Positions 2,100 to 60,762 of a stretch of 64,000 bases of DNA are shown here, piece by piece. A program made the translations under genes and the position numbers. Origin of the DNA: Bacteroidales bacterium (GTDB lineage: Bacteria; Bacteroidota; Bacteroidia; Bacteroidales; WCHB1-69). The DNA is taken from the NCBI GenBank assembly GCA_017395245.1, contig JAFPVR010000001.1, positions 50,601-114,600 of the forward strand, read 5' to 3'. A model generated the notes under the pieces. It worked only from the letters and a program-made list of their open reading frames with translations. It had not been told where the DNA came from and searched no databases. The first letter of the stretch is position 1; every line of letters starts with the position of its first letter.

Positions 2100-2127
2100 T
2101 TTGACCTTTGACTTTGACCTTTGACCC
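2100..2127. repeat. Heptamer-type tandem repeat (TTTGACC)
   Basis: Four degenerate units of TTTGACC/TTTGACT with 7, 6 and 7 bp steps, running directly into the hairpin repeat at 2125. Part of the family of 7-bp-period intergenic tracts in this window. Confidence 0.6.
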
Positions 2128-2182
2128 AGGGCTCCGCTTCGCTTCACCCTGGGCTGACATATTTCGGGCTTATAGCCCTTTT
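2110..2182 (+). repeat. Dispersed hairpin element, copy A
   Basis: Order of parts: GACTTTGACC, stem CCCAGGG (2125-2131) with CCCTGGG (2147-2153), linker CTGACATATTTC, then stem GGGCT-tat-AGCCC followed by TTTT. The same order and near-identical sequence recur at 13191-13263 (inverted) and 59494-59588. It lies between the converging 3' end of the POT gene and the 5' end of the barrel gene. Confidence 0.8.
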
Positions 2183-2191
2183 AGAAGAAGT

Positions 2192-2219
2192 TTGAAACTT
2201 GAATCTTGAAACCTGAAAC
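2192..2219. repeat. Heptamer tandem repeat (TTGAAAC)
   Basis: Four contiguous 7-bp units: TTGAAAC, TTGAATC, TTGAAAC, CTGAAAC. The same family recurs at 32757-32777. Confidence 0.75.
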
Positions 2220-2220
2220 C

Positions 2221-2250
2221 AAAAAGAGACCCATCTCGCGACAGGTCTCT
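2221..2250 (-). terminator. Intrinsic terminator of the POT transporter gene
   Basis: On the minus strand AGAGACC and GGTCTCT pair around a 12-base loop and are followed by TTTTT. It begins 30 bases after the stop codon of the transporter. Confidence 0.7.
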
Positions 2251-2279
2251 CCTTATATATAATATGGTAAAGGTTCCGA

Positions 2280-3926
2280 TTATTCCGTCACTCTTTCGAG
2301 CCACTTCACCATGCCGAGCATGACGGCCATGGAGACGAAGCAGACCGCTGCGAAAACGGCCCAGCAGTATTTGATCGGCCAGGCGTTGTACATCACCGGT
2401 CCGAGCCAGATCATCAGATTGCCGATGGCAGTGGCACCGAGCCACAAGCCCTGACACAAGCCCACCATGTGGCGCGGAGCCACCTTGGAGACGAACGACA
2501 GACCCAGCGGGGAGATGAACAACTCAGCGACAGTCAGCAGGAAGTAGGTGACGAGCAGCACCCAAGGAGCGGCTTTGGCAAGGCCGGCAGCAGCCATCTG
2601 GGCGGCATCCAACAAACGGAATTCCTCACCGGAAGGATAATTTCTGACAATAGAGAAAATCATCAGGAAGAGATATGCACTACCGGCAATGGCCATACCC
2701 AACGCAATCTTACGCGGGGTGGACATCGTGACTCGCTTGTTGAAGAGAATCATCAGCGGGGTGAGCACAATCACGAAGAAGGGGTTCAGAGCCTGCCAGA
2801 TTTCAGGAGCGATGGCATCCGTCTTGACGAAGTCGCGGGCGAACACGGACAACGACTGGCCGTTCTGGTGGAACGAGAACCAGAAGAAGATGGCGATACC
2901 TAACACGGCGAACAGCGCATACAGACGTTGCTTGATTTCCGTAGCCATGGCCTGTTTCTCTTCAGCGGTATATTCCACCACCTGAGCGGCCTCTTTCTTG
3001 GCCGGTTGCGGGAATTTGTACTTGTTGATGATGAAAATCGTCAGGGAAATAGCCATTGCGATAACAGACGCGATGAAGGAGAAATGCACACCCTGGTTGA
3101 AAACGGTGATGTAGTCGGAGCAGAAAGCTGCCGTGTCGGTGAAGTTGTAACCGGGTTGCAGAACTGCCTGCATGGTTTCAGTGAACTTTTGGGTCATTTG
3201 ACCATCAGCGAGGAATTGGTGACAAAGTCCGGACATATCGGCGTTATAGACAAGATGATGCGCCTTCAGCCACCACTCGCGAAGGAACGGGGCAATGAAC
3301 GGGGCGAAGAAACCGCCGATGTTGATGAAGACGTAGAAAATCTGGAAACCAGAGTCACGACGCTTTTTAGCCTCAGCGAGTGCTTCGGGACCCTTCTTGG
3401 CAGCCTCTTCCTCGAACTCGTCGTACAGCTTACCGACGATAGCCTGCAAGTTACCCTTGAACAGACCATTACCGAATGCGATGAACAACAGCGCCATGCA
3501 GGTGATAATCAAAATGGTGGCCCAACCCGTACCGCTGTCGAGGATGGCACCGTCAGCTGTCTTGCTGAACAACGGAATCGCCATCACCACATAGCCGATG
3601 GCCATGATAATCAAGCCCCATTGGATGGTCTTGTTGTAGTTTTGCGTTCTGTCGGCGATAATACCGCCCACCAGACTCAAGACATAGATTCCGAAGTAGA
3701 ATACAGAATAGATGACACCGGCCGTTGCATCGGGAAGACCGAACTTGGAGACCAAGAAGAGAAGCAGCACGGCGTTCATAATGTAGTAGCCGAAACGCTC
3801 ACCCATGTTGCTCAACGCCGCAGCGATGAGGCCCTTCGGGTGGTTTTTCGCTTCCTTCACGTAGTAAATAATGAACGGCACAATAACCAGTGCGCCGACA
3901 AGACAAATAATACCAGCTATACTCAT
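2280..3926 (-). CDS. POT/PTR2-family peptide MFS transporter
   Basis: A 548-residue polytopic membrane protein with about 14 hydrophobic segments, expected to carry di- or tripeptides into the cytoplasm with protons. The region GVIYSVFYFGIYVLSLVGG followed by IIADR matches the POT block after TM2, and the C-terminal half has the typical AELFISPLGLSFVSKVAP segment. TM1 reads NMGERFGYY where the classic motif is E-x-x-E-R-F-x-Y-Y-G, so the first glutamate of ExxER is Asn. A large extramembrane loop near residues 220-290 is enriched in polar residues. The gene lies 21 bases after thioredoxin on the same strand and probably shares its promoter. An intrinsic terminator follows at 2221-2250. Confidence 0.9.
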   Translation of the reverse strand: MSIAGIICLVGALVIVPFIIYYVKEAKNHPKGLIAAALSNMGERFGYYIMNAVLLLFLVSKFGLPDATAGVIYSVFYFGIYVLSLVGGIIADRTQNYNKTIQWGLIIMAIGYVVMAIPLFSKTADGAILDSGTGWATILIITCMALLFIAFGNGLFKGNLQAIVGKLYDEFEEEAAKKGPEALAEAKKRRDSGFQIFYVFINIGGFFAPFIAPFLREWWLKAHHLVYNADMSGLCHQFLADGQMTQKFTETMQAVLQPGYNFTDTAAFCSDYITVFNQGVHFSFIASVIAMAISLTIFIINKYKFPQPAKKEAAQVVEYTAEEKQAMATEIKQRLYALFAVLGIAIFFWFSFHQNGQSLSVFARDFVKTDAIAPEIWQALNPFFVIVLTPLMILFNKRVTMSTPRKIALGMAIAGSAYLFLMIFSIVRNYPSGEEFRLLDAAQMAAAGLAKAAPWVLLVTYFLLTVAELFISPLGLSFVSKVAPRHMVGLCQGLWLGATAIGNLMIWLGPVMYNAWPIKYCWAVFAAVCFVSMAVMLGMVKWLERVTE

Positions 3927-3947
3927 AATTTATTGGATTTTAATTAT

Positions 3948-4262
3948 TTACAGATGTTGGTTGATTTTCGCCACCAGCTCGTCTTTCTTGATGACGCCGA
4001 CGTGACGATCCACAAGCTCGCCGTTCTTGATGAAGACCAGCGTGGGGATGTTCATAATGCCGAACTGCATGGCGATGTCGCCGTTCTCGTCGGTGTCGCA
4101 TTTGCCGACCACGGCCTTGCCTTCAAATTCAGCGGCGACCTCCTCCACGATGGGAGCGATGCTTCTGCACGGGCCGCACCAGGTTGCCCAGAAATCAATG
4201 ACGACCAGTTTGTCGCCTTTGATCAGGGTCTCAAAATTCTCATTGTTAATTGCTAATGCCAT
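3948..4262 (-). CDS. trxA: Thioredoxin
   Basis: A 104-residue cytosolic thioredoxin with the active site WCGPC (Cys29, Cys32), the cis-Pro region IPTLVFIKNG near residue 74 and the buried Asp in VVIDFWATW. The length is that of a single-domain thioredoxin and there is no signal peptide. It reduces protein disulfides with electrons from thioredoxin reductase, which is not in this window. The TAnnTTTG box at 4292-4299 gives it its own promoter, back to back with that of the lipoprotein gene at 4353. The peptide transporter follows 21 bases downstream. Confidence 0.95.
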   Translation of the reverse strand: MALAINNENFETLIKGDKLVVIDFWATWCGPCRSIAPIVEEVAAEFEGKAVVGKCDTDENGDIAMQFGIMNIPTLVFIKNGELVDRHVGVIKKDELVAKINQHL

Positions 4263-4291
4263 AGTTTTTGGGTTTTAAAATTATTAAGCGG

Positions 4292-4299
4292 CAAAGATA
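4292..4299 (-). promoter_or_regulatory. -7 promoter box of trxA
   Basis: TATCTTTG on the minus strand followed by CCGC, 30 bases before the trxA ATG. It forms one half of a compact divergent promoter pair. Confidence 0.7.
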
Positions 4300-4322
4300 C
4301 ATTTTTTTTGTGATAAATTTTG

Positions 4323-4330
4323 TATATTTG
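4323..4330 (+). promoter_or_regulatory. -7 promoter box of the 4353 lipoprotein gene
   Basis: TATATTTG followed by CCACCGC, 22 bases before the ATG at 4353. It diverges from the trxA box, with only 23 bases between the two. Confidence 0.7.
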
Positions 4331-4352
4331 CCACCGCGAAATTTGTTAGAAA

Positions 4353-4760
4353 ATGAAACAGTTGAAAAGATTAACGGCACTCTGTTTTTGCGCGGTGACA
4401 CTGCTGGCCGGATGCACCAAATTCGGCACGGCGGTTTCCGAAATCACCTCTACGGAATACGAAAATAAAATGCTGACAGTCACGGCATTGATAACCGACA
4501 ACGGCGGCTGCGGCTACTATATGGAGCAGGGATTCTGCTACAGCCTCTTCTGCCCGCCGAACCTCAACGACATCTACACCACCGAGGTCAATGTCGCCCA
4601 CACCGTCCCGGCCGACTCCGCCGTCTTCTCGGCCACTTTCACCCTGCCGATGGTCGACACGGCCTACTACGTGTGCGCCTACGTGAAGAACAGCGCGGGT
4701 CTCTCTTACAGCCCCGCCGTGCGTGTATCCACCGGCGCCCAGCCCGACCCCGCAAAATAA
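4353..4760 (+). CDS. Small putative lipoprotein of unknown function
   Basis: A 135-residue protein. The N-terminus MKQLKRLTALCFCAVTLLAGC is a lipoprotein signal with lipobox LAGC, so the mature protein begins at Cys21 and should sit in a membrane facing the periplasm or outside. The rest is about 110 residues of beta-rich sequence with several Cys (NGGCGYYMEQGFCYS) and a fibronectin-III-like look (AYYVCAYVKNSAGLSYSPAV), as in Bacteroidales surface lipoproteins. No family was recognised. It has its own promoter, and butyrate kinase starts 48 bases downstream without an obvious promoter, so the two may be co-transcribed. Confidence 0.7.
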   Translation: MKQLKRLTALCFCAVTLLAGCTKFGTAVSEITSTEYENKMLTVTALITDNGGCGYYMEQGFCYSLFCPPNLNDIYTTEVNVAHTVPADSAVFSATFTLPMVDTAYYVCAYVKNSAGLSYSPAVRVSTGAQPDPAK

Positions 4761-4808
4761 CGTGACCGCTTATTCAATCAAAGACAGTATTAACCAATAA
4801 TAAAGATA

Positions 4809-7621: not shown

Positions 7622-7630
7622 CCCGTGCGT

Positions 7631-13126: not shown

Positions 13127-13130
13127 GCAA

Positions 13131-13165
13131 ACAGTGATCTGTGAACAGTGACCTGTGATTAGTAA
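13131..13165. repeat. Heptamer tandem repeat (nnnGTGA)
   Basis: Five 7-bp units: ACAGTGA, TCTGTGA, ACAGTGA, CCTGTGA, TTAGTAA. The tract starts 5 bases after the pyrB stop codon. Confidence 0.75.
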
Positions 13166-16397: not shown

Positions 16398-19300
16398 ATG
16401 AGAAAAATATCCTTGTTCCTCTTGTTGATGATAAGCACTCTGTTTGTAGCGGCGCAGGCACCCGAAAAATTCACCTATCAGGCTGTGGTGCGGGATGCCA
16501 GCAACCAACTGGTCACCAACACCTCGGTAGGTGTGCAAGTGGCTATTCTGCAAAATGGTGCTGGTGATCAAGGCACTCCTGTTTATTTGGAGAGGCACGT
16601 ACAAAACACCAATGCCAATGGTCTGGTGACGTTGAAAGTTGGCGAAGGCACCGTCCTTTTTGGCAATTTCAACACTATCAATTGGAAAAGCGGTGTGTTT
16701 TTTTTAGATGTGGGCATTGATCCTGCTGGTGGCAGCGATTATTCGATATGGTCCACCCAGCAGCTGTTGAGCGTTCCGTATGCGCTGTACGCCAACGAGG
16801 CGGGCAATGTGCCGGCCTTTTCGGTGGTGCCTACCGACACGGGCTATGTTATCAGCATCATTCAAGATGGTGGTGCGCCCCAGACTTTTGTGCTTCACCA
16901 AGGAACACCAGGGCCTGCCGGTCCTCAGGGTCCTGCTGGTCCTCAGGGCGAAACGGGCGCTGCCGGTCCGCAAGGCCCGCAAGGTGAAACGGGTGCTACC
17001 GGTCCCCAAGGCCCGCAAGGCGAAATCGGTGCTACGGGTCCCCAAGGCCCGCAAGGTCCTCAGGGAGAAACTGGTTCTCAAGGACCTCCAGGAGCTCCCG
17101 GCGTGGGCGTGCCGCAGACGCTATCTCTTGATGGTAACAACCTGTCGATTTCTGACGGCAACAGCGTAATTCTCCCGCAGATCCCGCAGATACCCGCAGA
17201 CGTATCGGCATTCAACAATGACGCAGGGTACCTTACCTCCTACACCGAATCCCAGACCCTTGCCGATGTGACCTTGCAGGGCAACTCCGCCGGCAACCGG
17301 CAGCTGAAGGATGTGGCCGACCCGACCGACAACTACGATGCTGTGAACCTGCGTTCGCTCACCCAGATGATGGATTCCGCTGCCACTGCAATACAGCAAA
17401 TGCAACAACAGTTGTCACAATCACAACAGCAATGGCAGTTAGCACAGGAACAATGGCAGGAGACCCAAGAGCAGTGGCAGATACAGCAGCAACAGATGCA
17501 ACAGCAGTGGCAACAACAGCAACTGCTTTTGCAGCAACAGATTGACAGTTTGACGCTGATTCTGAATGGCATGGCTGCAGACACAGCATTCACCCAATGG
17601 AACACCTCTGTGGTGAACGAGACGGCCTGCAGTGCTTACGAGTGGCATGGGCAGACCTATACCCAAAGCGGGATTTATCTGTACGGCTTCACTAACACAG
17701 ACGGATCCAACAATGTGGAGGCATTGAATCTGACTATCCACCATTCCGACACCACCCATTTACAGGAAGAAGCGTGTGAAAGCTATACTTGGCATGACGC
17801 TACATATTCGGAATCCGGCGAATATACCCACACGCTCACCAACAGCCTTGGTTGCGACAGCGTGCTGGTATTGCATCTGACAATTCATAACGGCACGCAC
17901 AATGTGGAAGCCATGACGACGCTCGATTCCTATACGTGGCACGACACCACCTATACCGAAAGCGGTGTTTACACCTATTCCTATAGCAACGAATACGGAT
18001 GTACGAGTACGGACACGCTGAAACTGACCATCAATCATGGCACTCACACGACTTGCGAATCGTTCATTTGGCATGACAGCAACTACACCGAGAGCGGTGT
18101 TTACACCTACTCTCATACTGATGAAAGCGGATTTGCCGTTGTGGACACGCTCATATTGACCATCCATTATGGTACGCACAATGTGGAAACGCATAGTGCA
18201 TGCGGTTCGTATGAATGGAATGGGCAAACTTATAGCCAAAGCGGCACCTACGCATACGCCTACCAGAACGAATATGGTTGCCCCAGCGTGGACACCCTGA
18301 AAGTGAGGGTTGTCACGGTTGATGAAAAGTCTTGTCCTCTGGCTCCTTGCGTCACCGACATTGACGGCAACATTTACGGTACGGTGCAGATCGGCGACCA
18401 GTGCTGGATGCGGGAGAACATGCGCTGCACCATTTCGCCAAGCACGGGCACCCCGATTATAGCATCTCCGAGCGGCACCTCCTACACCGGCAAGAAAGCC
18501 TACTACGTGAACGGCGATTCCGTCAACACTCTCTTCTACGGCCTGCTCTACAACTGGAACGCCGCTGTCGATACGTTCAACACGGCATTCGGAGAGACCT
18601 CCACCAACTCAAGTTCTTCCAATGCGGTGTCCGTCACATTCAGCGGGCAGCGCAGGGGCATCTGTCCGCAAGGCTGGCATGTGCCTTCCGATGCGGAATG
18701 GACGCAGCTCACCGACTATGTAAACAGTCAGGAACAATATCGATGCAACGGCATTTCCGGATATATAGCAAAAGCCTTGGCCTCAGAGACTGGATGGAGT
18801 GTCAACAGCAGTTCGTGTGGCGTGGGCAACAGTCCTACCAACAACCAGACCGGGTTCACAGCTGTTCCCGCAGGTTTTTATGAAGGGATGTTCACTCATT
18901 TCGGCATAGGTTTGAATTTGTGCTCCGCCACCCAGGTCAATGGCAGCACACACACTGCATGGCGCAGGTACATGTTTACCCAAAGCAATTCGGCCGGGGT
19001 GACTCGTGCTTATGACCTCACAAAGAATCTTGGACTTTCCGTCCGCTGCCTGCGCGACACGGGAACCGTCATCAACCCCATTAACCCTATCGACCCCGAC
19101 ACCACCGAGTGCATCGGCACGCACAACGTGGAAACGGAAAGCACATGCGTTTCGTACACTTGGCACGGGAACACCTATACGGAGAGCGGCACCTACACCT
19201 ACGACTACACCAATTCCGACGACTGTCCGAGCGTGGACACGCTCCACTTGACCATCCACGAACCAGACACTTCGGAATTCTCCGCCACCGCCTGCGAATC

Positions 19301-21602
19301 CTACTCCTGGAACGGAACCGACTATGCGCAGAGCGGCGACTATACGGTGACGCTTACCGCTGCCAACGGATGCGACAGCGTGGTCACCCTTCACCTCACC
19401 ATCCATCAAAGCACACACAATATTGTCACAGCAGAAGCCTGTGAATCTTACACTTGGAACGGACAGACGTACACGCAAAGCGGCACCTACACCCGCGAAT
19501 ACACCAACGAGCAGGGCTGTCCCAGCACAGAAACACTGCAACTGACCATTAATAAGGGTACGCATAACGTCTTTTATGAAACGGCCTATGATTCCTATAC
19601 TTGGAACGGGGAGACTTACACTGAGAGCGGCACCTATACCCATCATTACACTAACGCCCATGGTTGTGCCAGTGCGGACACGCTCCATCTGACCATTCTG
19701 CACAGCACCCACCATGTCTTCACAGCTGAAGAGTGTGATTTTTTCATTTGGCACGACTCCACGCTCACCCATAGCGGCACTTTTATCTATTATTATACCA
19801 ACGAAGACGATTGCGCCAGCGCGGACACGCTTTTTCTGACCATCCACAACGGCACGCACAATAACTTCACGGTAGAAGATTGTGAATCCTACAATTGGCA
19901 CGACAGCACCCTCACCGAGAGCGGCACCTACCTGTACCCCTACCTCAACGAACATGGATGCGCCAGTGCGGACACGCTCCACTTGACTATCCAAGATGTA
20001 GTGGGTGAACTTGTTGTTGTTTCAGTTTGCGAAAACTATTTGTGGCATGACAGCTTATACACCGAAAGCGGTACTTACACGTATGCCGACACGAATGAAA
20101 ATGGTTGCCTCGTCGTGGACACCCTGCTGTTGACCCTATATCACGGCACGCATAATGTGTTTAATGAAATCACGAATGAGCCTTATACCTGGCATGGGCA
20201 AACTTACCCCGAGAGCGGCACTTACACCTACGAATACTTGAACGAGAACGAGTGTGCCAGCGTGGACACCCTGCACCTGACCATCAATACGCCAACGGGC
20301 GGGCTCGTTGCGGTTGACGCCTGCGAAGAGTATGTTTGGCACGGGAACACCTATTATTGGGACGGCACCTATACTTACAACTATACGAACGCGGCCGGCA
20401 ACCCCGTCACGGACACCTTGCTCCTGACCATCCATTACCCTGTTTATGAGGACTTTGATGCTGCCACATGCGACTCCTATACATGGAACGGGCAGGTATA
20501 TACGCAAGAAGGCGAGTATGAGCAGACCTTTACCTCCGCCTACGGCTGCGACAGTGTGGTCACGCTGTATCTGACCATCTATCCTGCCAATAACGCCTAT
20601 ACGGTGAACACCAGTTCCGATTACACTTGGCATGATTCCACCTATACCGAAAGCGGCACCTACACGTATGCTTACACCACCGAGAACGGTTGTCCCAGTG
20701 TGGACACCCTGTACCTGACCATTACACCGTCCGACAGCATCGTGGACGGCATGCCTTGCCCAGGCACGCCCACAGTGGCCGACCATGAGGGCAACGTTTA
20801 CAACACGGTGCAGATCGGCAGCCAGTGCTGGACCAAGGAGAACATGCGCTGCACCACCTCGCCGAGCACGGGCAGCAACCTTATTCCCGCTTGGATCTAC
20901 ACCTCCGGCTGTTTCGAATCGGAATATAACAAGTGTGCGATGTACTCCGACCGTTTTTCGCAAGATCCCGCTTACGGAGTGCTCTACAACTGGTGTGCGG
21001 CTATGGATGTCTTCAACCAGTCCTATCCCGAGATTCATGACGGTTCATGTGGAGATAATGGTTCGCAAGAGGAATGGCAATACATCATCACCGGTCAGCA
21101 CAGAGGCATCTGTCCCCAAGGATGGCATGTGCCTTCCACCGATGAATTCCACCAGTTGACAACTTATCTCCTTAATAGCGATGGATACCACTGCGACAAT
21201 GACTGTTATGACATGATTGTGGGAAACGCCGTCAACTGCATCGCCAAGGCGCTGGCAGATTCGGTGGGTTGGAACCTTTACAATTACACACCCGGAACAT
21301 TCGAATGGATGGCGGGCGCATGTTCGGTTGGCTACGACTTGTCTTCCAACAACGCCTCTGGTTTCAGTGCGTTGCCTGCCGGCTATGCAGGAGGCGCCCA
21401 TGGTGATCAAATAGACGATTACCACTGGATTTTTTACCCCTACGCTTTCTATTCCGGAGAAAGGGCCTACTTCCACTCTTCCACTTCCACTCTCTCGTCC
21501 GGACTGTACCGTTTTCAAATGTACTATGATCAATCCGCAGTGAAACATGCAGATGATATCGTGGCAGGGCAAGGGTATTCCGTCCGTTGTCTGAAAGATT
21601 AG
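16398..21602 (+). CDS. Giant secreted protein: collagen-like stalk, Trp/Gln coiled coil, 16 repeats, two FISUMP domains
   Basis: 1734 residues with a signal peptide (cleavage after FVAAQ). Order: an N-terminal beta domain (about 20-140, [16 protein letters not shown]) shared with the next gene; a collagen-like tract of 23 G-x-y triplets (about 167-237); a [20 protein letters not shown] hinge; a Gln-rich coiled coil with Trp every seventh residue (329-383); five ~46-residue repeats (405-640); FISUMP domain 1 (651-887); eleven more repeats (905-1443); FISUMP domain 2 (1453-1734). The repeat core is C-x-S-Y-x-W-x-G-x-x-Y-x-x-S-G-x-Y with D-T-L-x-L-T-I at the end. FISUMP domains show GxQCWMxENMR and [11 protein letters not shown]. 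There is no classical T9SS sorting tail. It is probably a surface or extracellular adhesin-like fibre. Confidence 0.88.
16898..17110 (+). repeat. Collagen-like Gly-x-y coding repeat
   Basis: Twenty-three uninterrupted G-x-y triplets, mostly GPQ, GET, GAT and GPA, encoded by tandemly repeated DNA. Such tracts form triple helices in bacterial surface proteins. Confidence 0.85.
17383..17546 (+). repeat. Gln-rich heptad coding repeat with periodic Trp
   Basis: The coding DNA is mostly CAG/CAA with TGG at seven-codon steps ([21 protein letters not shown]). This predicts a coiled coil with Trp at one core position, directly after the collagen-like stalk. Confidence 0.75.
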
Positions 21603-26384: not shown

Positions 26385-26419
26385 TCAATAACCTATAACC
26401 AATAACCTATAACCATTAC
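26385..26419. repeat. Heptamer tandem repeat (CCTATAA)
   Basis: Units CCTATAA, CCAATAA, CCTATAA, CCATTAC in strict 7-bp phase. The tract overlaps the stop codon (26416-26418) of the PorP/SprF-like gene. Confidence 0.75.
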
Positions 26420-28778: not shown

Positions 28779-28788
28779 CATTTTTTGA

Positions 28789-28836
28789 GGTTACACGGTT
28801 AAAAGGTTACACGGTTAAAAGGTTACACGGTTAGGG
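28789..28836. repeat. 16-bp tandem repeat built of two 8-mers
   Basis: GGTTACAC and GGTTAAAA alternate for six 8-bp units (the last is GGTTAGGG). The tract runs straight into the 22-bp repeat array and lies just upstream of the rarA promoter. Confidence 0.8.
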
Positions 28837-28940
28837 CATTGGCCGATGCGTATATAGGCATTGGCCGATGCGTATATAGGCATTGACCAATGAGTATATA
28901 GGCATTGGCCGATGCGTATATAGGCATTTTTTGGCCAATG
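28835..28940. repeat. 22-bp tandem repeat array (4 full copies plus a partial)
   Basis: Units start at 28835, 28857, 28879 and 28901, with a partial at 28923. Each unit has GGCATTGGCCGATG, a near-palindrome, followed by CGTATATA. The third copy carries GACCAATGAG. The copies are contiguous without spacers. The array fills the gap between rarA and ksgA. Confidence 0.85.
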
Positions 28941-29744: not shown

Positions 29745-29751
29745 TATTTTG

Positions 29752-29793
29752 TGATTAGTGATTAGTTAGCAGTGATTAGTTAACAGTTATAGG
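29752..29793. repeat. Heptamer tandem repeat (GTGATTA)
   Basis: Six units in phase: GTGATTA, GTGATTA, GTTAGCA, GTGATTA, GTTAACA, GTTATAG. It lies just upstream of the ksgA start. Confidence 0.75.
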
Positions 29794-32729: not shown

Positions 32730-32755
32730 TAGAGACGCAAAATTTTGCGTCTCTA
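32730..32755. repeat. Perfect 26-bp palindrome
   Basis: TAGAGACGCAAAA is followed directly by its reverse complement. It lies 25 bases after the stop codon of the GSCFA gene, read on the minus strand, and could work as a terminator hairpin, but no T-run follows. Confidence 0.8.
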
Positions 32756-32756
32756 C

Positions 32757-32777
32757 TTGAAACCTGAAACTTGAATC
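32757..32777. repeat. Heptamer tandem repeat (TTGAAAC)
   Basis: Three units: TTGAAAC, CTGAAAC, TTGAATC. Same family as 2192-2219. It ends 2 bases before the GSCFA stop codon. Confidence 0.65.
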
Positions 32778-36886: not shown

Positions 36887-36985
36887 CATTCCTGGCGCAA
36901 AACAGTCGCCAGGAATGGCGACTCTTCTACTGTCGCCAGGAATGGCGACTCTTCTACTGTCGCCAGGAATGGCGACTCTCCTACT
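36887..36985. repeat. 27-bp tandem repeat (3 copies) with internal hairpin
   Basis: Copies start at 36905, 36932 and 36959. Each contains GTCGCCAggaatGGCGAC, a 6-bp stem, followed by TCTTCTACT (TCTCCTACT in the last). Upstream, CATTCCTGGCG (36887-36897) is the reverse complement of part of the first unit. The copies are contiguous, without spacers. Confidence 0.85.
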
Positions 36986-48249: not shown

Positions 48250-50174
48250 TACTGGGCTTTTTCGGCGATGGATTTTCTCTTTTTCACAACTTTGATAGAC
48301 TCGTTGCCAAACGAATAGGTGATACCCACGATAGCGTTGATACCGAAGTTGTTGAAGCCATAATAGTTCGTGGCATACTGGCAACCGATATTGTTGACGT
48401 TCGCAAATGCGGTGAACTGCTTGGTAATCAGGTACTCGAACCCGATGCCGAAGTTCAGCACCGGTTTGACCGACCGTGTGTCACCCGCAGCTCTTCTGAG
48501 GTCATTCTCAACCCTGTATTCAATGGTGGCCGGTCCGGTGGGATCGCCATACTCATCATAAGGCTGTGTGCAAACCGGCACCACCACCCAGCGGTCGAGG
48601 CCGATTTTCGCATTGGCCGTGAAGATGAAGCGGTTTTTCAAGATATACTTGCCTTCGAAACCAATCTCCCAACGCGGGATATAGAGCGGTTTGCCGCCCG
48701 TGATGCTGTCAGAACCAAACCAATTATAGTTCTCCAGGAAGAAGAAATCGTGGTAACGGCCAGATAGTGTCAGGTAGAGGTGGTTGATGGCCTCCCAGCT
48801 CAAATTGGCATTCACGTCAAGTTCCTTGCCCTTCTTGGCATACACCACATCGAACTGGTTCTTGAGCAGGCTATTGGTATCGAGCATGTAGAACGGCAGG
48901 TCGCGTCTGAAGGAGTAACGTGCCGAAACATGATAGTTCAACTTGCTGGTTATCTTACCTTTGACACCGCCATAGATGCTGATTTGCGTCTTGGTGAACT
49001 TCAAAGTGTCAAGGTCGGGTTTCACGTAGGGATTCTCGTAGAGAAGGCTCTTGAGGGAGGTGTACTCGCTGCGGCCGTCCACACCCACATAGAGATTGAG
49101 CACCTCGCGGATGAGGCCGAACTGCAACTCCGCCACGGGATAGATCGGGCACTGCGGCTTAATGCCTTGTTTGACAAGAATCGGCACCCCGACACCCACC
49201 AACAAATGGTATTCGCGGATGCTGAACCGCATGGTCGGACGCAACTCGAACTTGAAGCTGTTGTCAACGCGGGGGCGCAACAGGCTACCGTCCAAGCCCA
49301 TCGGCACACTGTCGTTCCAACTGTTGTTGTAATAGTCGAAACCCAAGTCGAGCTGGTAGTGCTGCATGCCGGATATTTTCATGAACTTGGCATCGTACGC
49401 CAACATGCCGCGCAAACCCACATTATGTTCCATGTTCTTCCAGCTTGTGCGGAGGAAGTCGTAACTGACACGCACGTCCTCCTTGAGACGGCGTTCCTCG
49501 GCGGTGTAGTTGGAACGGAACCCGACCTCGGCACGCACATGGTTGAAATTGTTCTTGATGCTGTCGCGGTAGGGTTTGTCGTAATACTGGTCGGGATCCG
49601 TATAAATTTCCGGCCGCACCCAATCCCGTGAATATCCGTAGAGGTTGGCCAACTCATGGTTGTAGTCCACAGCGGAATAGAGCGTGTAGTTCTTGAAGAT
49701 GCGGTTGAAGAAGAGATGCACGCGCGTGTCGCTCGTAGGGGCGTATGCGTACTTTTTCTGCTCCTTACCAATCGGGTTTGCCCACGACGAGAAGTGGTGA
49801 AAGTTCAGCCCATAGGAGTATTTCGGACTCTGGCAATTATGCATCGACAGCTCGGCCAACGGCGTTATGGGGTAGCCGAACCCGAGCTTGATGTAGTTGC
49901 GGTAATAACCCTCCTTAACCTCGGGGTTGAGCTTGCCCACCTGCATGTCGCCCGCCGCAAACTGCACATTCGGTTTTGTGGGCGCCACCACGTAGTTGAA
50001 CTCCATTTTCTCGCTCACCACCGTGTCCCTCAGCACGGCCTGCTGGTTGATTTTATTGGAATTGGCCAACTTCGGCACATACTTGATCAGCAACTGCGCA
50101 GAATCCACCACCTGTGCCCGCAAACCCATACCACAGACCAACATTATTGACAATAAAAACGTTATCTTTTTCAT
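48249..50174 (-). CDS. Large outer-membrane beta-barrel protein (TonB-receptor-like barrel)
   Basis: 641 residues: signal peptide (MKKITFLLSIMLVCGMGLRAQ), a short ~60-residue linker, then about 550 residues of alternating barrel strands with many Tyr, Phe and Arg (YRNYIKLGFGYPITPLAELSMHN at the first strands, GFNNFGINAIVGITYSF near the end). No plug domain was seen, so it is a barrel without a classical TonB plug. ATG 50174 is chosen over the open frame to 50210 because it begins the signal peptide. It sits 48 bases after the TPR gene and is coupled to the Rieske-like lipoprotein, suggesting one envelope complex. Confidence 0.75.
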   Translation of the reverse strand: MKKITFLLSIMLVCGMGLRAQVVDSAQLLIKYVPKLANSNKINQQAVLRDTVVSEKMEFNYVVAPTKPNVQFAAGDMQVGKLNPEVKEGYYRNYIKLGFGYPITPLAELSMHNCQSPKYSYGLNFHHFSSWANPIGKEQKKYAYAPTSDTRVHLFFNRIFKNYTLYSAVDYNHELANLYGYSRDWVRPEIYTDPDQYYDKPYRDSIKNNFNHVRAEVGFRSNYTAEERRLKEDVRVSYDFLRTSWKNMEHNVGLRGMLAYDAKFMKISGMQHYQLDLGFDYYNNSWNDSVPMGLDGSLLRPRVDNSFKFELRPTMRFSIREYHLLVGVGVPILVKQGIKPQCPIYPVAELQFGLIREVLNLYVGVDGRSEYTSLKSLLYENPYVKPDLDTLKFTKTQISIYGGVKGKITSKLNYHVSARYSFRRDLPFYMLDTNSLLKNQFDVVYAKKGKELDVNANLSWEAINHLYLTLSGRYHDFFFLENYNWFGSDSITGGKPLYIPRWEIGFEGKYILKNRFIFTANAKIGLDRWVVVPVCTQPYDEYGDPTGPATIEYRVENDLRRAAGDTRSVKPVLNFGIGFEYLITKQFTAFANVNNIGCQYATNYYGFNNFGINAIVGITYSFGNESIKVVKKRKSIAEKAQ

Positions 50175-50183
50175 TTTTCCAAT

Positions 50184-50225
50184 ATTCATTATTCGGCATT
50201 CATAATTCATAATTCAACATTTCTA
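50184..50225. repeat. Heptamer tandem repeat (ATTCATA)
   Basis: Six units in phase (ATTCATT, ATTCGGC, ATTCATA, ATTCATA, ATTCAAC, ATTTCTA). It runs into the TAG stop codon (50223-50225) of the TPR gene. Confidence 0.7.
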
Positions 50226-53200
50226 ATTGTCCAGCGCATCAACCTCCGCGATTTTCTGTTTCGCCAAATTCACGAGATCCGCACCGCCGTAGTTGTCGAC
50301 GATACTCTGGTAGGTGTGACGGGCCTGGAAGTAGTTGCCCCTCGCCTTGTAGAGGTCGCCGTAGAGGATGAAGGTCTTGGCATACCAATATTCGGAAGAG
50401 TAGTCGCTGCCGAGGATCGCCTTGATGCGGGCCTCACAGTCGTCAAGATTCTTGTCGTGGTTGAGGGCGATGTCAGCTAAATGGTAGGCAGCCTCGGCAC
50501 AGAGGTCGTTGCTACCTTTGGGCATCAACTGGCTGTAGTAGCCCTTGGCTGTTGCCACTTCGTTGAGTTCCATGGCCGAGTTGCCAGCGATGAGCAACGC
50601 CTCGGAAAGCAAATCCTGGTCAGGCTGGCCGGAACGGATAATGTTCTCCGCACTCGTCAGTGCCGACCGCCACTCCTTCAGGTTGTAGGCACAGCGCATG
50701 GCGCCATTGTTAGCGTAGACAATCTCCTCCTCAGCAGTGGTGTTTTCCATCAGCTTGTTGAAGTAAGTCAGCGCCTTGGCGTACTTTTTGTCATTATATA
50801 ATATAGACGCAGCCTTGTGCAGCGCAGTCACATTGTACTCGGTCTTGTATTTCTTGATGATGGCTTCGTAATCCGCCAACGCATCGTCGTAGCGGCGCAT
50901 TCCGTACTCGCACTCACCCTTGTAGAAGTGGGCCTTGGCCACGAACGAACCGTTGGGGAACTGCCGCAGGTAGTCCTGACACGCGGCAATGGAGGCTTCA
51001 CAGTCGCCACGGTTGTACTTGGTTTCCGCCGCCTTGAACGCGATGGAATCCTGACGGTCAGCGGAAATGTTCATGTTCTTGGAACGCACATAGTCGAAAA
51101 ACTCGCTGGTATTGCCATTTTCCGTGTAAATGGTCTCCAAGTTGGCGAGCGCGTCCTTGGCCTCCTGCGATCCCGGATAGGTCTCCACCACGTACTTGTA
51201 GGTGGAAATGGCCATCTGCGGGTTGTCGCTGTTCAGGTAAGCCTGCGCCAACCGCGTGTGCGCCTGACGGATGTACTGGCTCTTCGGATGGCTCTTGATA
51301 AACGACTTGTAGGCCGAGATGGCACTGGCATAATCGTTCTGGGTGTGGTAAGTCACCGCAAGATCAAACTCCGCATCGTCTTTGTAACTTGATGACGGAT
51401 AAGAACTTAACAGACGCTCCAAAGTCTGGATTTTCTTGTTGTTGTTCTTCTGGTAGCCGTAACATTTCGCCAACTGGTAGACGGCATAGTCGGCATTCGA
51501 CTGCCCGAGCCGCTCGCACTGGTCGTAGTATTTAATGGCATTCGGAAGGTCGAGCTGCATAAAGTAGCAATCAGCCAAACGTGCGGAGGCATCGGCTTGT
51601 ATATCAAGGTCTTCCGAATTTTTCGACTTGTTGAGGTAGGTCTTGAAATTATTGCCGGCATCTTTGTACCGTTTCAACTTCAAAGCAGCATAACCCAATG
51701 AATAGTAGGAGTTTACATAGTATTCATTGGAAGATGCCCCGGTCGCGTTCTGGTAAGTCTGGAAGGCGTTGTAGGCATCCTTGTACTGCTCGTTGCGATA
51801 CATCGCCTCCGCTTTCCAATAGAGGGCGTCAAGATGTGTTTTCTTGTCGGACGGCGCGGACAACGTCTTGCCTAACAGCGTGATAGCATCTTTGTAATTT
51901 TTATTGTTGATGAGTTCGAGAGCGCGGTTGTAGGTGCAGCGTTGATAAGCCTTGAGGATGGCCGGACTCTTGCTCTTGAGTTTCTCGATGGAGGCGATAG
52001 CGGCCTGGTAGTTCTTGGTGGAAAGGTAGATACGCGAAAGATAGTCGGCAGCCTCCTCACTGTGTTCAGCGTGCGGATACTGGTTGAGGTAGTCCTGCAG
52101 CGCCTCAATGCCGTTGTTGAACGGACTGGTGGAAGTCTCGCACTGCAACTTGGCGTAGTTGAACATCGACTCCTCCTTGATGGTGGGATCGAAATCGTAC
52201 TTGGAGGCCTCCTTGAAGCTCTGCGCCGCAAGGGTGCGCTGGCCGGTCTTCATGTAGCAGTCGGCAATGAGGAAATAGCACTGCTGCGTCATCGCGTCGG
52301 GCTCCTTGTCGTTGGCGGCATGGGAAAAATCGGTGATAGCCTCGTTGTAACGCTGCACACGGTAATCGGTGAAGCCCATGGCGAACCAGTCATTACGATC
52401 AAGGGTTATCTGATTGTTCTCCTGCAACTTGGCGAAATTGTCGGCAGCCTCCTCATACTGGTTGAGGTTGTAGTGCGACAACGCCACGCAGCGTGCCACC
52501 TGCGATTGGTTTTGGTCCTTCGGGGTGGCAATATCGGGAGCAACCTCCAAAACCTTCTCGTACTCGCCATCTTTGAAATAAATCTGAGTAAGGAAATAAG
52601 GTACCTCGCTTTTGAAGTCGGGATTGTCCTTCAGCGTGAGGAAATCCTCAAGCGCGGCATCGTACTGTTCGTTCTGGTAAGCCATGTAGGCGAGGTAATA
52701 GACACTGCGCTCTTTGTAGGGGCCCTCTTCCTCGCGTGCCTTGCGGAACAGCATCTTGGCGTTGTCGTAATCTTTCGTCATGAAATAGGCGTAGGCCTTC
52801 TTGAAGTGGTACTCTTGCACATTCTCGGGCTGGATTTGCGACTCGTAAATTTCATCGAACTGCGCGATGGTCTTCTTGTAGTCCTTGCGGGCGAAATAAA
52901 AACGACCGAGGTAAAAGCGCGCCTCGGGCACGGAGGTGTGCACGGGGTAGCGGTCGATGAACGACTGCAACAGGTAGCCGGCATCCTGATTGTCGAGCTT
53001 GGCGGCGCACACGCCCTGGTAGAAGAGCGAGTTGGTGCGCAGGTCGTGCTGACTGTCGTCAGTGCTCTCATAGACACTCCGGAAATACTGCTGCGCGGAG
53101 CCATATTTCTCTTTGTTGAAAAGGTCCACCGCCGTTTGGTACTCGTATTGCGGTGATTTGAAGTTCTCCGTACGTTGCGCAGAGACGGTCTGAACGGTGA

Positions 53201-56155: not shown

Positions 56156-56156
56156 T

Positions 56157-57650: not shown

Positions 57651-57674
57651 TATTTTGGGTTTTATTGTTTTTTT

Positions 57675-57797
57675 GTGAATAGTGATTAGTGATTGGTGAT
57701 AAGGCAAAAGGCAATAGGCAGTAGGCAGTAGGCAATAGTGTTCGTCCAAAGTCTTAAGTCTCAAGTCTTAAGTCTTAAGTCTCAAGTCTTAAGTCTT
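57675..57797. repeat. Compound heptamer tandem repeat (three families)
   Basis: Nine contiguous 7-bp units run from GTGAATA and GTGATTA types into GGCAATA/GGCAGTA types without loss of phase (57675-57737). After 11 bases come seven units of AAGTCTT/AAGTCTC (57749-57797), the last overlapping the stop codon (57796-57798) of the oxidoreductase gene. It forms the whole gap between that gene and hutH. Confidence 0.9.
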
Positions 57798-59469
57798 ATT
57801 TCGGGATAACATTGTATTTGCCGATAAGACGGTACGTCCGCATTCCCCCAATCAGGTTATATACCTCGTCGAATCCGTTCTGCATGAGGATGCGGGCGGC
57901 GACGTAGCCGCGAAGACCGACCTCGCAGAAGACCACGATCTTCTTCCCTTCGGGAATCTCTTCGAGGAACTCGCGCAACTCATCCACGGAGTAGCGGGTC
58001 GCACCCTCGACGGTACCGCTCTTGTACTCAGGCAGTTCGCGGACATCCAACAGGAAGAAGTCGTCCTTGTTGTCAATCATATCATCCAACTGGTGAACGT
58101 GAATCGGGTTCATCAGGTGGGCGAAGATGTTTTCGGCGACCATACCGGCGAACATCACGGGACTCTTGGCCGAGCCAAACGGCGGCGCGTAGGTGTGCTC
58201 GCTGTTCACGAGGTCGAAGATGGTGCCGTGGTGTTTGAGCAGTAGGGAGATGGTATCAATCTGTTTGTCAATGTTTTGTATGCCGATAGCCTGTGCGCCG
58301 TACAGGGTGCCGTCCTCCATGGAGAAGTTCAGCTTCAGCGACATCGGGGTGTTGCCGGGATAGTAGGTGGCGTGTGCGGCCGGATGCACGATGACGGTCT
58401 CGTAAGTGAGTCCCGCCCGCAGCAAGGCCGCCTCGTTCAAGCCCGTAGACGCTACAGCCAAGTCGAAAATCTTGGCGATGGCAGTGCCCACAGAGCCTTG
58501 ATAGACCACACTTTCGGGATAGACCATGTTCATGGCGGCGATACGTGCTTGCGCATTCGCGGGACCCGCAAGGAAGTTGCAGTATGGAACGCCCGTCACC
58601 GGATGCGGGAATTCGATAGCGTCGCCCACAGCGAAGATGCGCTCGTCGGAGGTCTGCAGGAACTCGTTGACCTTGATGCCCCGACCGATTTCCAGACCAG
58701 CCGCTTCGGCCAATGCCGTGTTCGGACGCACGCCGATGCTCAGCACCGCAAGGTCACAGTCCAACTTCTGCCCATCTTCCAAGCAGACGGTCAGCTGGTC
58801 GCCGTTTTCCTCAAATCCACTAATACCGTTACCCGTAATCAGTTGCACGCCCTTGTCTTTCAGATGCTTCTGCGCGATAGCCGCAATCGGTTCATCCACG
58901 GGCGTGAGGATATGGTCAGCCTTCTCCACCACGGTAATCTGGTAGCCGATCTTGTGGAGGTTTTCGGCCATCTCCAACCCGATGAAGCCGCCACCGATGA
59001 TGACCACTTTGGCGTTATCGTGCAGGGATTCAACGGCTTGAATCTTGATTTTATCGCAATCGCTGACGCTGCGCAGGGTGAAGATCTTCTCGCTGTGGAT
59101 GCCGGGCAGTTCGGGAATCACCGGTTCGGCGCCGGGCGAGAGCAACAGGATGTCGTAATCCTCGCTATAGGTCTTGCCGTTGCGCAGGTTCTTGACCTCC
59201 ACGGTGTGCGTCTCGCGGTCGATGGCGGTCACTTCCTGCAACGTCCGGACATCCACGTCGTAGCGGTTGCCGAAAGAGACGGGTGTCTGCACGAAGAGCC
59301 GCTTGCGCTCCTCGATGGTGTTGCCGATGTAGTAGGGCATGCCGCAATTGGCGTACGAGATGTGTTCGCCTTTCTCGAACATGATGATTTCAGCATCTTC
59401 ACTGAGTCTTCGCAGTCGTGCGGCCGCTGATGCTCCGCCTGCCACACCGCCTATGATGACGTATTTCAT
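57796..59469 (-). CDS. CoA-disulfide-reductase-like flavoprotein fused to rhodanese
   Basis: 557 residues. The N-terminal ~450 residues are a pyridine-nucleotide-disulfide oxidoreductase: FAD loop IIGGVAGGASAAARLRRL, single redox Cys in SYANCGMPYYIG (about residue 43), NADH loop VVIIGGGFIGLEMAENL near 155, second FAD block RIFAVGDAIEF. The last ~100 residues are a rhodanese domain (DDFFLLDVRELPEYKSG) with active Cys in VVFCEVGLRGY. This CoADR-RHD arrangement reduces CoA disulfides, persulfides or polysulfide with NAD(P)H. The electron acceptor here is not known. It stands alone, with no promoter box recognised. Confidence 0.92.
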   Translation of the reverse strand: MKYVIIGGVAGGASAAARLRRLSEDAEIIMFEKGEHISYANCGMPYYIGNTIEERKRLFVQTPVSFGNRYDVDVRTLQEVTAIDRETHTVEVKNLRNGKTYSEDYDILLLSPGAEPVIPELPGIHSEKIFTLRSVSDCDKIKIQAVESLHDNAKVVIIGGGFIGLEMAENLHKIGYQITVVEKADHILTPVDEPIAAIAQKHLKDKGVQLITGNGISGFEENGDQLTVCLEDGQKLDCDLAVLSIGVRPNTALAEAAGLEIGRGIKVNEFLQTSDERIFAVGDAIEFPHPVTGVPYCNFLAGPANAQARIAAMNMVYPESVVYQGSVGTAIAKIFDLAVASTGLNEAALLRAGLTYETVIVHPAAHATYYPGNTPMSLKLNFSMEDGTLYGAQAIGIQNIDKQIDTISLLLKHHGTIFDLVNSEHTYAPPFGSAKSPVMFAGMVAENIFAHLMNPIHVHQLDDMIDNKDDFFLLDVRELPEYKSGTVEGATRYSVDELREFLEEIPEGKKIVVFCEVGLRGYVAARILMQNGFDEVYNLIGGMRTYRLIGKYNVIPK

Positions 59470-59493
59470 ATTGCTTCGTATTCGTTCTTAATG

Positions 59494-59588
59494 TCCCAGG
59501 GTTCACTGCATTCTCCCTGGCTGTTCTCTCCCAGGGCTCACTGCGTTCACCCTGGGTTAACATAGGTCGGGCTTTCAGCCCTTTTTGG
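59494..59588 (+). repeat. Dispersed hairpin element, copy C (with an extra half unit)
   Basis: CCCAGGG/CCCTGGG stem (59530-59556), AACATAGGTC linker, GGGCT/AGCCC stem and T-run match copies A and B. A further CCCAGGG...CCCTGG half lies directly upstream (59495-59520), so the hairpin part is duplicated. It fills the gap between purC and the oxidoreductase. Confidence 0.8.
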
Positions 59589-59595
59589 AAGAGGT

Positions 59596-60540
59596 CTATC
59601 TATTATTAAGCCAGTTCGTTACATTGTCGTATATTCGTTGCTCCACGTTGTCGGCGGGGGCGGGGACGAACTTCTCGCCGGTGATGTTCTCGTAGAGTTC
59701 GATATAGCGTTGGGTGATGCCGTTGACAACCTCTTCGGTCATTTCAGGCACCTGCTGGCCTTCCTGGCCTTGGAAGCCGTTGGCCATCAGCCACTCGCGC
59801 ACGAACTCCTTCGACAACTGCTTCTGCGGCAGCCCTTTGGCGAACTGTTCCTCGTAGCCTTGGGCATAGAAGTAGCGGGAGGAGTCGGGGGTGTGGATTT
59901 CATCGATGAGGTAGATTTTATCATCCGCTTTGCCGAACTCGTACTTGGTATCCACGAGAATCAATCCCTTTTTGGCCGCGATTTCGGTGCCGCGGAGGAA
60001 GAGCTTCATCGTGTAATCCTCCAAAACGGCGTAGTCTTCGGGGGAGACGAGGCCCTTGGCAAGGATTTCCTCCTTGGAGATATCGGCATCGTGCTCGCCC
60101 TGCTCGGCCTTGGTGGTCGGGGTGATGAGCGGCACGGGGAATTTCTGGTTCTCCTTCATGCCGTCGGGCAGGATGTTGCCGCAGAGGTTGCGGCCGCCGT
60201 TCTTGTAGAAACGCCACGCGCTGCCGCAGAGGTAGCCGCGCACGATCATCTCCACCGGGAAGCCCTTGCAGGTGCGGCCCACCGTGACCATCGGGTCGGG
60301 CGTGGCCATCTTCCAGTTCGGACAGATGTCGCTGGTGGCATCCAAGAATTTGGAAGCTATCTGGTTGAGGATCTGTCCTTTGTAAGGGATGCCCTTCGGC
60401 AAAATGACATCGAAGGCGCTGATGCGGTCGCTGGCGACCATCACTAACACATCGTCTAAGAAGTAGACGTCACGGACTTTTCCGTGATACACCGACTTTT
60501 GGTTCGGGAATTGGTAATTGGTTTTTGTTAAGGCGTTCAT
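59596..60540 (-). CDS. purC: Phosphoribosylaminoimidazole-succinocarboxamide synthase
   Basis: 314 residues; the SAICAR synthase of purine synthesis, joining CAIR and aspartate with [28 protein letters not shown] near residue 20 is the ATP-binding block, and [12 protein letters not shown] and [15 protein letters not shown] are substrate blocks of the longer form common in Bacteroidetes. No other pur gene is adjacent and no purine riboswitch was recognised in the 217-base gap upstream, which holds only repeats. Confidence 0.95.
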
Positions 60541-60548
60541 TATTTAAT

Positions 60549-60576
60549 GGTTATAGGTTATGGGTTATAGGTTATT
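60549..60576. repeat. Heptamer tandem repeat (GGTTATA)
   Basis: Four units in phase: GGTTATA, GGTTATG, GGTTATA, GGTTATT. It begins 8 bases upstream of the purC start. Confidence 0.75.
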
Positions 60577-60581
60577 GATGT

Positions 60582-60648
60582 CCCCACACTGCGGCTTCGC
60601 CTTGTGTGGGGTTAATTGCGCTTCGCGCGTGTTGCCTCTTCGAGGCAG
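60582..60648 (+). repeat. Three-hairpin GC-rich element related to the dispersed family
   Basis: CCCCACAC/GTGTGGGG around a GCTTCGCC loop, then CGC-ttcg-GCG, then GCCTC-tt-cGAGGC. The first hairpin has the same build as copies A-C (C-rich arm, CTTCGC loop, G-rich arm, TTAA/TGA linker), with different arm sequence. Confidence 0.65.
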
Positions 60649-60713
60649 CTTAAGAAATAAGTTTACTATATATCATTTCTGTTCGAATTCATTTCTATTA
60701 CCTATTGTCTGGT

Positions 60714-60762
60714 CACTGTTCACTGCTCACTAATCACTAATCACTGTTCACTACTCACTATT
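60714..60762. repeat. Heptamer tandem repeat (CACTnnT)
   Basis: Seven contiguous units from CACTGTT to CACTATT with variable positions 5 and 6. The last unit contains the TAG stop codon (60758-60760) of the subtilisin gene. Confidence 0.85.

What the first reader, a model, noticed from the sequence alone, without database searches (positions are those of the whole stretch)
2100..60762. Intergenic tandem repeats with a 7-bp period, different sequence at each site, often touching stop codons
Seen directly: tracts at 2100, 2192, 13131, 26385, 29752, 32757, 36264, 50184, 57675, 57749, 60549 and 60714 all step by 7 bp, although the heptamer differs (TTGAAAC, nnnGTGA, CCTATAA, GTGATTA, AGAATnn, ATTCATA, GGCAATA, AAGTCTT, GGTTATA, CACTnnT). 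At least four overlap the upstream gene's stop codon (26416, 50223, 57796, 60758) and others lie within a few bases of one. A shared unit length without shared sequence suggests a length-dependent process. Cyanobacteria are known to carry heptameric short tandem repeats; I know of no described Bacteroidales equivalent. The mechanism is inference.
Basis: partly seen in the sequence, partly recalled or inferred. Interest (0 to 1): 0.72.

Follow-up and report, generated by a model that had tools for sequence, protein, structure and literature searches.

The report
Seven-base repeat arrays between genes
A rumen bacterium's genome is dotted with short arrays of a seven-base unit squeezed between genes, often right behind a stop codon and often as mirror-image pairs; they belong to about ten shared repeat families that related species swap at the same spots, which makes them an unusually rich case of a poorly understood but already known type of bacterial repeat.

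Summary
The period is real: in 850.6 kb of this genome, intergenic tandem tracts number 99 at lag 7, 2 at lag 6 and 0 at lag 8. Stop-codon proximity is real, though partly because the arrays carry stop triplets themselves. "Different sequence at each site" is wrong: 85% of 104 tracts share their exact heptamer with another tract, in about ten families. Units have a fixed 4-6 nt core and 1-3 free positions, often come in fours, and neighbouring same-family arrays are almost always inverted. At orthologous gaps related species carry different families or none. A sister genus has 16 lag-8 and 11 lag-7 tracts, so the unit length is not universal. Much of this architecture is published for Xanthomonas GGGNATC arrays, where the four-unit preference is linked to G-quadruplexes; here 0 of 99 tracts has four G3 runs, so that cannot be the general cause. 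Best reading: REP-like extragenic repeats that disperse by an unknown route, probably change by whole units, and keep their cores through recognition or copying. New variant of a known kind; function unproven.

The parts
2100..2126 (-). array of TTTGACC / GGTCAAA family (one 6-nt unit)
2187..2225 (+). array of GAAACYT / GAATCYT family, on the other side of a palindromic element (2125-2179)
13130..13158 (+). GTGANNN array in the pyrB-pyrI gap, just after the pyrB stop
26385..26419 (-). four-unit GGTTATN element (TAAT-4 units-TTGAA) over the stop of the PorP-family gene
29748..29787 (+). GTGATTA array before the rsmA start
32755..32777 (+). short GAAACYT array (about three units) next to the GSCFA gene's stop
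50170..50228 (-). GAATNNT (ATTCATA) array over a stop codon
57672..57741 (+). GTGATNN array passing in register into a GGCAANA array; probably upstream of the true hutH start (inferred: family matches begin at residue 41-44 of the ORF)
57743..57803 (-). AAGTCTY (RAGACTT) array, 7 units, over the stop of a CoA-disulfide-reductase-like gene
60543..60580 (+). four-unit GGTTATN element before the purC start
60706..60762 (-). GTGANNN (TCACTNN) array, 7 units, over a stop codon

Best explanation
These are REP-like extragenic repeats built from 7-bp units. A small set of repeat families, each with a fixed core of 4-6 nt and 1-3 free positions, is scattered over permissive gaps between genes: behind stops, between codirectional or convergent genes, less often between divergent genes. 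Shown: recurrent families, fixed cores, an excess of four-unit arrays in some families, inverted pairing of neighbouring same-family arrays, different families or none at the same orthologous gap, and species-specific copy numbers. Supported but thinly: arrays grow and shrink by whole units, as slipped-strand replication would make them. Inferred: short array cassettes are copied into new gaps, inverted partners arise by fold-back copying, and the cores stay fixed because something recognises them or because copying needs them. The stop-codon overlap is mostly a matter of where insertion is tolerated plus the array's own stop triplets (inferred).
For: Lag 7/6/8 = 99/2/0. Shared heptamers in 84.6% of 104 tracts. 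Uneven variation over the seven positions in the nine families tabulated (the registers of B, D and H there mix neighbouring families). GGTTATN element: 18 copies with all 27 core positions intact against 0 in the reversed control, while the free positions differ in 66% of pairwise comparisons. Units per exact-core array, 2/3/4/5 units: own 47/30/43/13, relatives 50/21/24/4 after removing duplicate loci. Same-family neighbours: 12 inverted and 2 direct of 24 pairs (own), 9 and 0 of 11 distinct pairs (relatives). Orthologous gaps with swapped families. Five of eight pyrB-pyrI spacers compared measure 107, 114, 121, 149 and 163 nt, each 2 modulo 7. Units two apart are identical more often than in any of 300 shuffles, adjacent ones more than in all but 6; lags 3-6 show nothing. 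AAGTCTY triplets: 301 overlapping matches here, matches in 19 of 104 family genomes. Divergent gaps with a tract 5 of 28 own and 0 of 74 relatives, against 37 of 154 and 27 of 279 codirectional.
Against: The dispersal step was not observed and no enzyme is tied to it. Y1 transposase matches are few (3 here) and do not track array richness by eye. Whole-unit length change rests mainly on one locus: 12 of 23 nonzero differences were multiples of 7 against 7 of 63 in array-free gaps, but the pyrB gap recurs in several pairs; in three genome pairs it was 3 of 12, about what chance gives. Neutral slippage alone does not explain fixed cores with nearly saturated free positions. The four-unit excess shows in A, B and D here and H in relatives, but not in C, E, F or I here nor in A in relatives.
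Confidence: 0.5

Rival explanations
1. Plain replication slippage with a built-in 7-nt preference of the DNA polymerase (the proposal of Mrazek 2007 as reported in PMC4679880 and PMC4692102): independent births at each site, neutral afterwards.
For: 7 far over 6 and 8; five of eight pyrB-pyrI spacers equal modulo 7; one- and two-unit block duplication; in 40 loci of other families of the phylum lag 7 still leads (6 against 0 at lag 6 and 3 at lag 8).
Against: Independent births do not give the same heptamer at 84.6% of tracts, nor fixed cores with nearly saturated free positions, nor inverted neighbours. Sister genus has 16 lag-8 and 11 lag-7 tracts.
Confidence: 0.2
2. Multi-subunit protein-binding arrays: each core is a site, 7 bp the step, four sites the minimum, as with the omega protein of plasmid pSM19035, whose parS is 7-10 WATCACW heptads and needs four contiguous ones for full activity.
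For: Family A (AATCACT) closely resembles WATCACW (PMC9499535 passages); fixed core plus free spacer; excess of four units in some families; both orientations.
Against: RHH_1 proteins were found in 0 of 40 genus genomes, while 8 of 14 control genomes ring (other RHH families not searched). About ten different cores would need as many specificities. Arrays are sparse in divergent gaps, where promoters lie.
Confidence: 0.15
3. RNA-level elements: intercistronic hairpins or terminators selected in the transcript.
For: Three inverted pairs folded as single-stranded DNA: for two no shuffle of 200 is as stable, for the third 5 of 200; position behind stops.
Against: Sense and antisense strands of 48 array-bearing codirectional gaps (40-350 bp) fold equally well (25 lower, 23 higher, p=0.86), so no G-U signature of RNA selection; many arrays have no inverted partner.
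Confidence: 0.1
4. Templated by a reverse transcriptase from a short RNA (telomerase-like).
For: Fixed pitch with changing sequence in register.
Against: RVT_1 has no match in this genome and matches in only 9 of 40 genus genomes, 8 over the cut-off.
Confidence: 0.03

Closest known systems
GGGNATC / GGGGA(C/T)T heptameric repeats of Xanthomonas and Nostoc (PMC4692102; abstract and passages read)
   Same: Heptamer with fixed and free positions, 2-26 units with a preference for four, convergent pairs close together (Xanthomonas; few in Nostoc), nearer to the 5' neighbouring ORF, under-represented between divergent ORFs, length variation between related species.
   Different: One G-rich family studied per genome and linked to G-quadruplexes; here about ten families, 0 of 99 tracts with four G3 runs and 23 of 99 with four G2 runs, and families replaced at the same site between species, whereas there most repeats sit between the same genes in both species.
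Cyanobacterial STRR sequences (PMC2670836 passage; original papers recalled only)
   Same: Mostly 7-bp units between genes, able to form hairpins, function unknown.
   Different: Only a passage seen; family turnover, cores and unit-number preference not compared.
TAACTGA direct repeats of Beggiatoaceae, Cyanobacteria and five Bacteroidetes (PMC4679880; abstract and passages read)
   Same: Intergenic heptamer arrays; other heptamers noted beside them in two Bacteroidetes; some overlap stop codons.
   Different: One sequence, mostly just upstream of starts; TAACTGA is not among the consensus heptamers of the 450.6 kb sample.
REP / BIME elements and TnpA-REP (starts of abstracts in a search listing)
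   Same: Short, extragenic, high copy, palindromic or inverted, lineage-specific.
   Different: No fixed palindrome tag looked for; linkage to a Y1 transposase not shown; internal 7-bp tandem structure.

Membership tests
Intergenic heptameric tandem repeats (long SSRs / STRR type) | Tandem 7-bp units in excess over other lengths, mostly intergenic | tested here: met
   intergenic lag 7 99, lag 6 2, lag 8 0; 26 lag-7 tracts fell in called ORFs (my own ORF rule)
Intergenic heptameric tandem repeats (long SSRs / STRR type) | Copy number differs between relatives by whole units | tested here: inconclusive
   five of eight pyrB spacers agree modulo 7; only 3 of 12 in three genome pairs
Xanthomonas/Nostoc G-quadruplex heptamers | Preference for four units | tested here: met
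   pooled 3/4/5 units: own 30/43/13, relatives 21/24/4; 2-unit counts 47 and 50; not in every family
Xanthomonas/Nostoc G-quadruplex heptamers | Four runs of three or more G | tested here: not met
   0 of 99 tracts
Xanthomonas/Nostoc G-quadruplex heptamers | Convergent (inverted) pairs and position near the upstream ORF's end | tested here: met
REP/BIME (RAYT-mobilised) | High-copy extragenic elements dispersed in the genome | tested here: met
REP/BIME (RAYT-mobilised) | Y1 transposase linked to the repeat | tested here: inconclusive
   Y1_Tnp in 36 of 40 genus genomes, 3 matches here; surroundings of those genes not examined
REP/BIME (RAYT-mobilised) | Tagged palindrome (GTAG or CGTC) | not tested
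   tag named in a title in the listing; not searched in the arrays
omega/parS heptads (RHH) | RHH-fold ParB-like protein in the genome | tested here: not met
   RHH_1 0 of 40 genomes, controls 8 of 14; other RHH families not searched
Phase-variation contingency loci | Copy number switches expression | not testable with these tools
   no strain-level or expression data

The most novel reading that the evidence does not exclude
The arrays are sites of a sequence-specific, multi-subunit machine whose pitch is 7 bp in one lineage and 8 bp in its sister, and whose working unit is four cores; families are specificity variants that sweep through a genome's gene gaps and replace one another at fixed addresses. 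The four-unit rule seen in Xanthomonas would then be a binding rule, not a G-quadruplex rule.
Probability: 0.15. Interest if true: 0.85.

Novelty: new variant of a known kind. Interest (0 to 1): 0.55.

Why it matters
Why heptamers are so common among bacterial tandem repeats is left open in the papers whose passages I read. This clade gives a natural experiment: many families in one genome, free against fixed positions, replacement at the same gap between species, and a sister genus with 8-bp arrays. It separates explanations that a single-family genome cannot: it removes G-quadruplex formation as the general cause of the four-unit preference and makes a universal 7-nt polymerase step less likely.

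Tried and rejected
RNA-level selection: no sense/antisense difference. Reverse transcriptase origin: no RVT_1 match here. RHH-bound arrays: RHH_1 absent. Selection for stop codons on the sense strand: 41 against 17 of 62 when the stop may lie in the tract, but 19 against 14 of 35 when it lies outside. Not explained by that: just upstream of starts the sense strand also has more stop triplets (22 against 10 of 33), and arrays hold more stop triplets than shuffles (9.8 against 6.5 per 100 nt, mean of strands). The orientation bias of G-first strands holds at 3' ends (44 of 58) but not significantly at 5' ends (25 of 41). Rfam on the window gives no match to an array. Papers: six searches; I saw listings, and passages of seven papers; Mrazek 2007 and the first STRR papers were not read. 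In the listings of these searches I saw no paper on multi-family heptamer arrays in Bacteroidales; that is not proof of absence. Gap-length counts by pairwise alignment (31 of 84 multiples of 7) were noisy and are not relied on.

Mended on checking: relatives' loci overlapped (17 pairs, 13 inverted) and one locus did; the deduplicated figures are.

Limits: genes were called by a longest-ORF rule of my own; the named genomes of the genus are MAGs or assemblies of uncultured bacteria with one genome per species, so no strain comparison; short-read assembly may shorten long arrays (matches at contig ends). Unit counts need exact cores, so decayed arrays are split. The own sample (850.6 of 3777.4 kb) came from contigs seen in the lists of array matches, so its density may be somewhat high.
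Full report
What was checked. The window is contig C55, 50601-114600, of a 3.78 Mb, 129-contig assembly. Named relatives with at least 90% PyrB identity are uncultured Bacteroidales genomes, mostly from the rumen and gut of herbivores by their record titles. I compared each base with the base k positions on and called a tract where at least 15 of 18 successive comparisons agree, and counted it as intergenic if more than half or 40% lies outside my ORF calls. In the window plus 20 stretches (450.6 kb) intergenic tracts number 64 at lag 7, 2 at lag 6, 0 at lag 8, and 0.3 at lag 7 in Markov shuffles; lags 14, 21, 28 and 35 carry the harmonics. With 20 more stretches (850.6 kb) the counts are 99, 2 and 0. 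The period claim is therefore right for this genome.

Families. The heptamers are not different at each site. Counting rotations and strands as one, 84.6% of 104 tracts have their exact heptamer at another tract, against 6-8% for random intergenic heptamers. Main families, written G-first: A GTGANNN, B GGTTATN, C NAGACTT, D GAAWCYT, E GAATNNT, F GTTAGNA, H GGCWNTN, I GGTCAAN. Variation sits mainly at one to three of the seven positions and the rest is a fixed core. For the four-unit B element, 18 copies in own and related sequence keep all 27 core positions while a reversed control gives none, and the three free positions differ in 66% of pairs (A 31, G 44, T 68, C 4 in 49 copies), close to saturation for three bases (the core difference of 12% is biased low because copies were chosen by core match). 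Families grade into one another in register: C runs into D in four arrays of the own listing, A into D and I into D once each; the window tract at 57672-57741 goes from GTGATNN to GGCAANA.

Architecture. Neighbouring same-family arrays within 150 bp are inverted 12 times and direct twice in the own sample (24 neighbour pairs, about 3.7 of each expected from random pairing), and 9 to 0 in relatives (11 distinct pairs). Exact-core arrays have 2, 3, 4, 5 units in 47, 30, 43, 13 cases in the own sample and 50, 21, 24, 4 in relatives. Four is over-represented against a steady decline, in A, B and D here and in H in relatives, but not in C, E, F or I here, nor in A in relatives. Gaps of 15-800 bp holding a tract: codirectional 37 of 154, convergent 9 of 27, divergent 5 of 28 in the 450.6 kb own sample; 27 of 279, 9 of 63 and 0 of 74 in 45 relatives' loci.

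Stop codons. In codirectional gaps 40 of 71 tracts lie within 10 bp of, or over, the stop side (22.1 expected with overlap allowed, 0 of 2000 simulations as many) and 25 as near the start side; in relatives 19 of 32 (12.2 expected, 6 of 2000). Near 3' ends the G-first strand reads away from the gene in 44 of 58 cases (C, A, B, F, E 37 of 41; D 6 of 11; I 1 of 6), and stop triplets are denser on the sense strand (41 against 17 of 62). When only tracts that begin after the stop are taken, the difference is 19 against 14 of 35. So the overlap is partly made by the arrays, whose own stop triplets end the ORF. PyrB shows the other part: its frame ends at the same place with or without an array.

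Evolution at fixed addresses. The pyrB-pyrI gap is 10-15 bp in many relatives, but in this genome and, by eye, roughly 20 of 54 listed relatives it holds arrays of different families, several as inverted pairs. The gap beside the PorP-family gene holds GGTTATN here, GGTTATT then AGTTTAG in G030, and GGTTTAG in G038. One gap has an inverted GGTTTAA pair in G034 and an inverted GGCTTTT-type pair in G008 and L059; another has GTGANTT/AATCACT in G034 and L059 but TTTACGR/GAAACYT in G008, between conserved flanks. Species differ greatly in dominant family: AAGTCTY triplets (overlapping 21-base matches) 301 here, 91 in G005, 85 in G038, 1 in G030, with matches in 19 of 104 family genomes; the four-unit B element 34 here, 85 in G010, 75 in G029, 74 in G006, with matches in 21 of 104 and a reversed control of zero in each.

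How arrays change length. Five of the eight pyrB-pyrI gaps with AAGTCTY arrays that I compared measure 107, 114, 121, 149 and 163 nt, each 2 modulo 7; the other three (89, 97, 110) do not fit. Over 13 pairings of genomes, gaps with arrays in both species differ by a multiple of 7 in 12 of 23 nonzero cases, against 7 of 63 array-free gaps and 0 of 13 with an array in one, but the pyrB gap is counted repeatedly; in three pairings it is 3 of 12, where several gaps have changed family. In 30 arrays of eight or more units, units two apart are identical more often than in any of 300 shuffles and adjacent ones more than in all but 6; unit lags 3-6 show no excess. Whole-unit slippage is thus likely but thinly shown.

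Why seven? Lag-7 tracts per 100 kb: 11.6 here, 13.1 in 34 distinct loci of the rich clade of the genus (79 at lag 7, 10 at lag 8), 1.75 in its poor clade, 15.0 in three loci of other family genera (60 kb only), 2.9 in the sister genus g10, 0.94 in 40 loci of other families of the phylum, 0.96 in Firmicutes and a spirochaete. In g10 lag 8 gives 16 tracts and lag 7 gives 11, eight of the latter on one stretch. Some 8-bp arrays there have the core GACG, close to GACGT units here, and also occur inverted. The unit length thus looks like a property of lineage and family.

Relation to what is known. PMC4692102 (abstract and passages) describes in Xanthomonas the same combination: heptamer with fixed and free positions, preference for four units, convergent pairs, nearness to the 5' neighbouring ORF, few between divergent ORFs. 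It links four units to G-quadruplex formation. Here 0 of 99 tracts has four G3 runs and 23 have four G2 runs, so the shared architecture needs another cause. PMC4679880 (abstract and passages) reports TAACTGA arrays in five Bacteroidetes, other heptamers beside them, and relays the polymerase-slippage idea. The omega/parS heptads (PMC9499535 passages) look like family A and need four units for full activity, but RHH_1 proteins were found in none of 40 genus genomes. I file the arrays under intergenic heptameric repeats as a new variant, and say only that they behave like REP elements.

Noticed in passing
window 2125-2179 and 59530-59582: Palindromic elements just over the Rfam cut-off for Acido-Lenti-1 (37.9 bits, cut-off 37); the first sits between two heptamer arrays.
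   Followed up: no
window 36905-36985: Three copies (98% match) of a 27-bp unit that contains an inverted repeat, in a gap where G034 and G008 have short unrelated sequence.
   Followed up: partly
window 28788-28928: An 8/16-bp array (AGGTTACACGGTTAAA) next to a 22-bp array (GGCATTGGCCGATGCGTATATA, 4.3 copies) downstream of rsmA; the 22-bp array is absent from G030 and G038.
   Followed up: partly
window 16909-17098, in ORF 16398-21602: 36- and 72-bp coding repeats in a 1734-residue ORF that read as collagen-like Gly-X-Y (reading of the repeat is mine, not translated in a call).
   Followed up: no
own 850.6 kb sample, e.g. window 60582: A second extragenic palindrome CCCCACA...TGTGGGG at about 22 places (44 matches over both strands), in the window right beside a GGTTATN element.
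   Followed up: no
G000 contigs C96, C97, C80: Array matches lie at or near contig ends, suggesting that long arrays break the assembly.
   Followed up: no
window 59282-59450: Rfam V_AS7 (Vibrio RNA) match, 96.6 bits, antisense to a CoA-disulfide-reductase-like gene; probably a match to conserved coding sequence (last clause inferred).
   Followed up: no
L264 (G063 C4 1-20000): Eight lag-7 tracts in one 20-kb stretch of a genus whose other sampled stretches have mostly 8-bp arrays; could be foreign or mis-binned DNA.
   Followed up: no
own sample, tracts 0-40 bp upstream of a start: Sense strand carries more stop triplets than antisense (22 against 10 of 33), unexplained.
   Followed up: no
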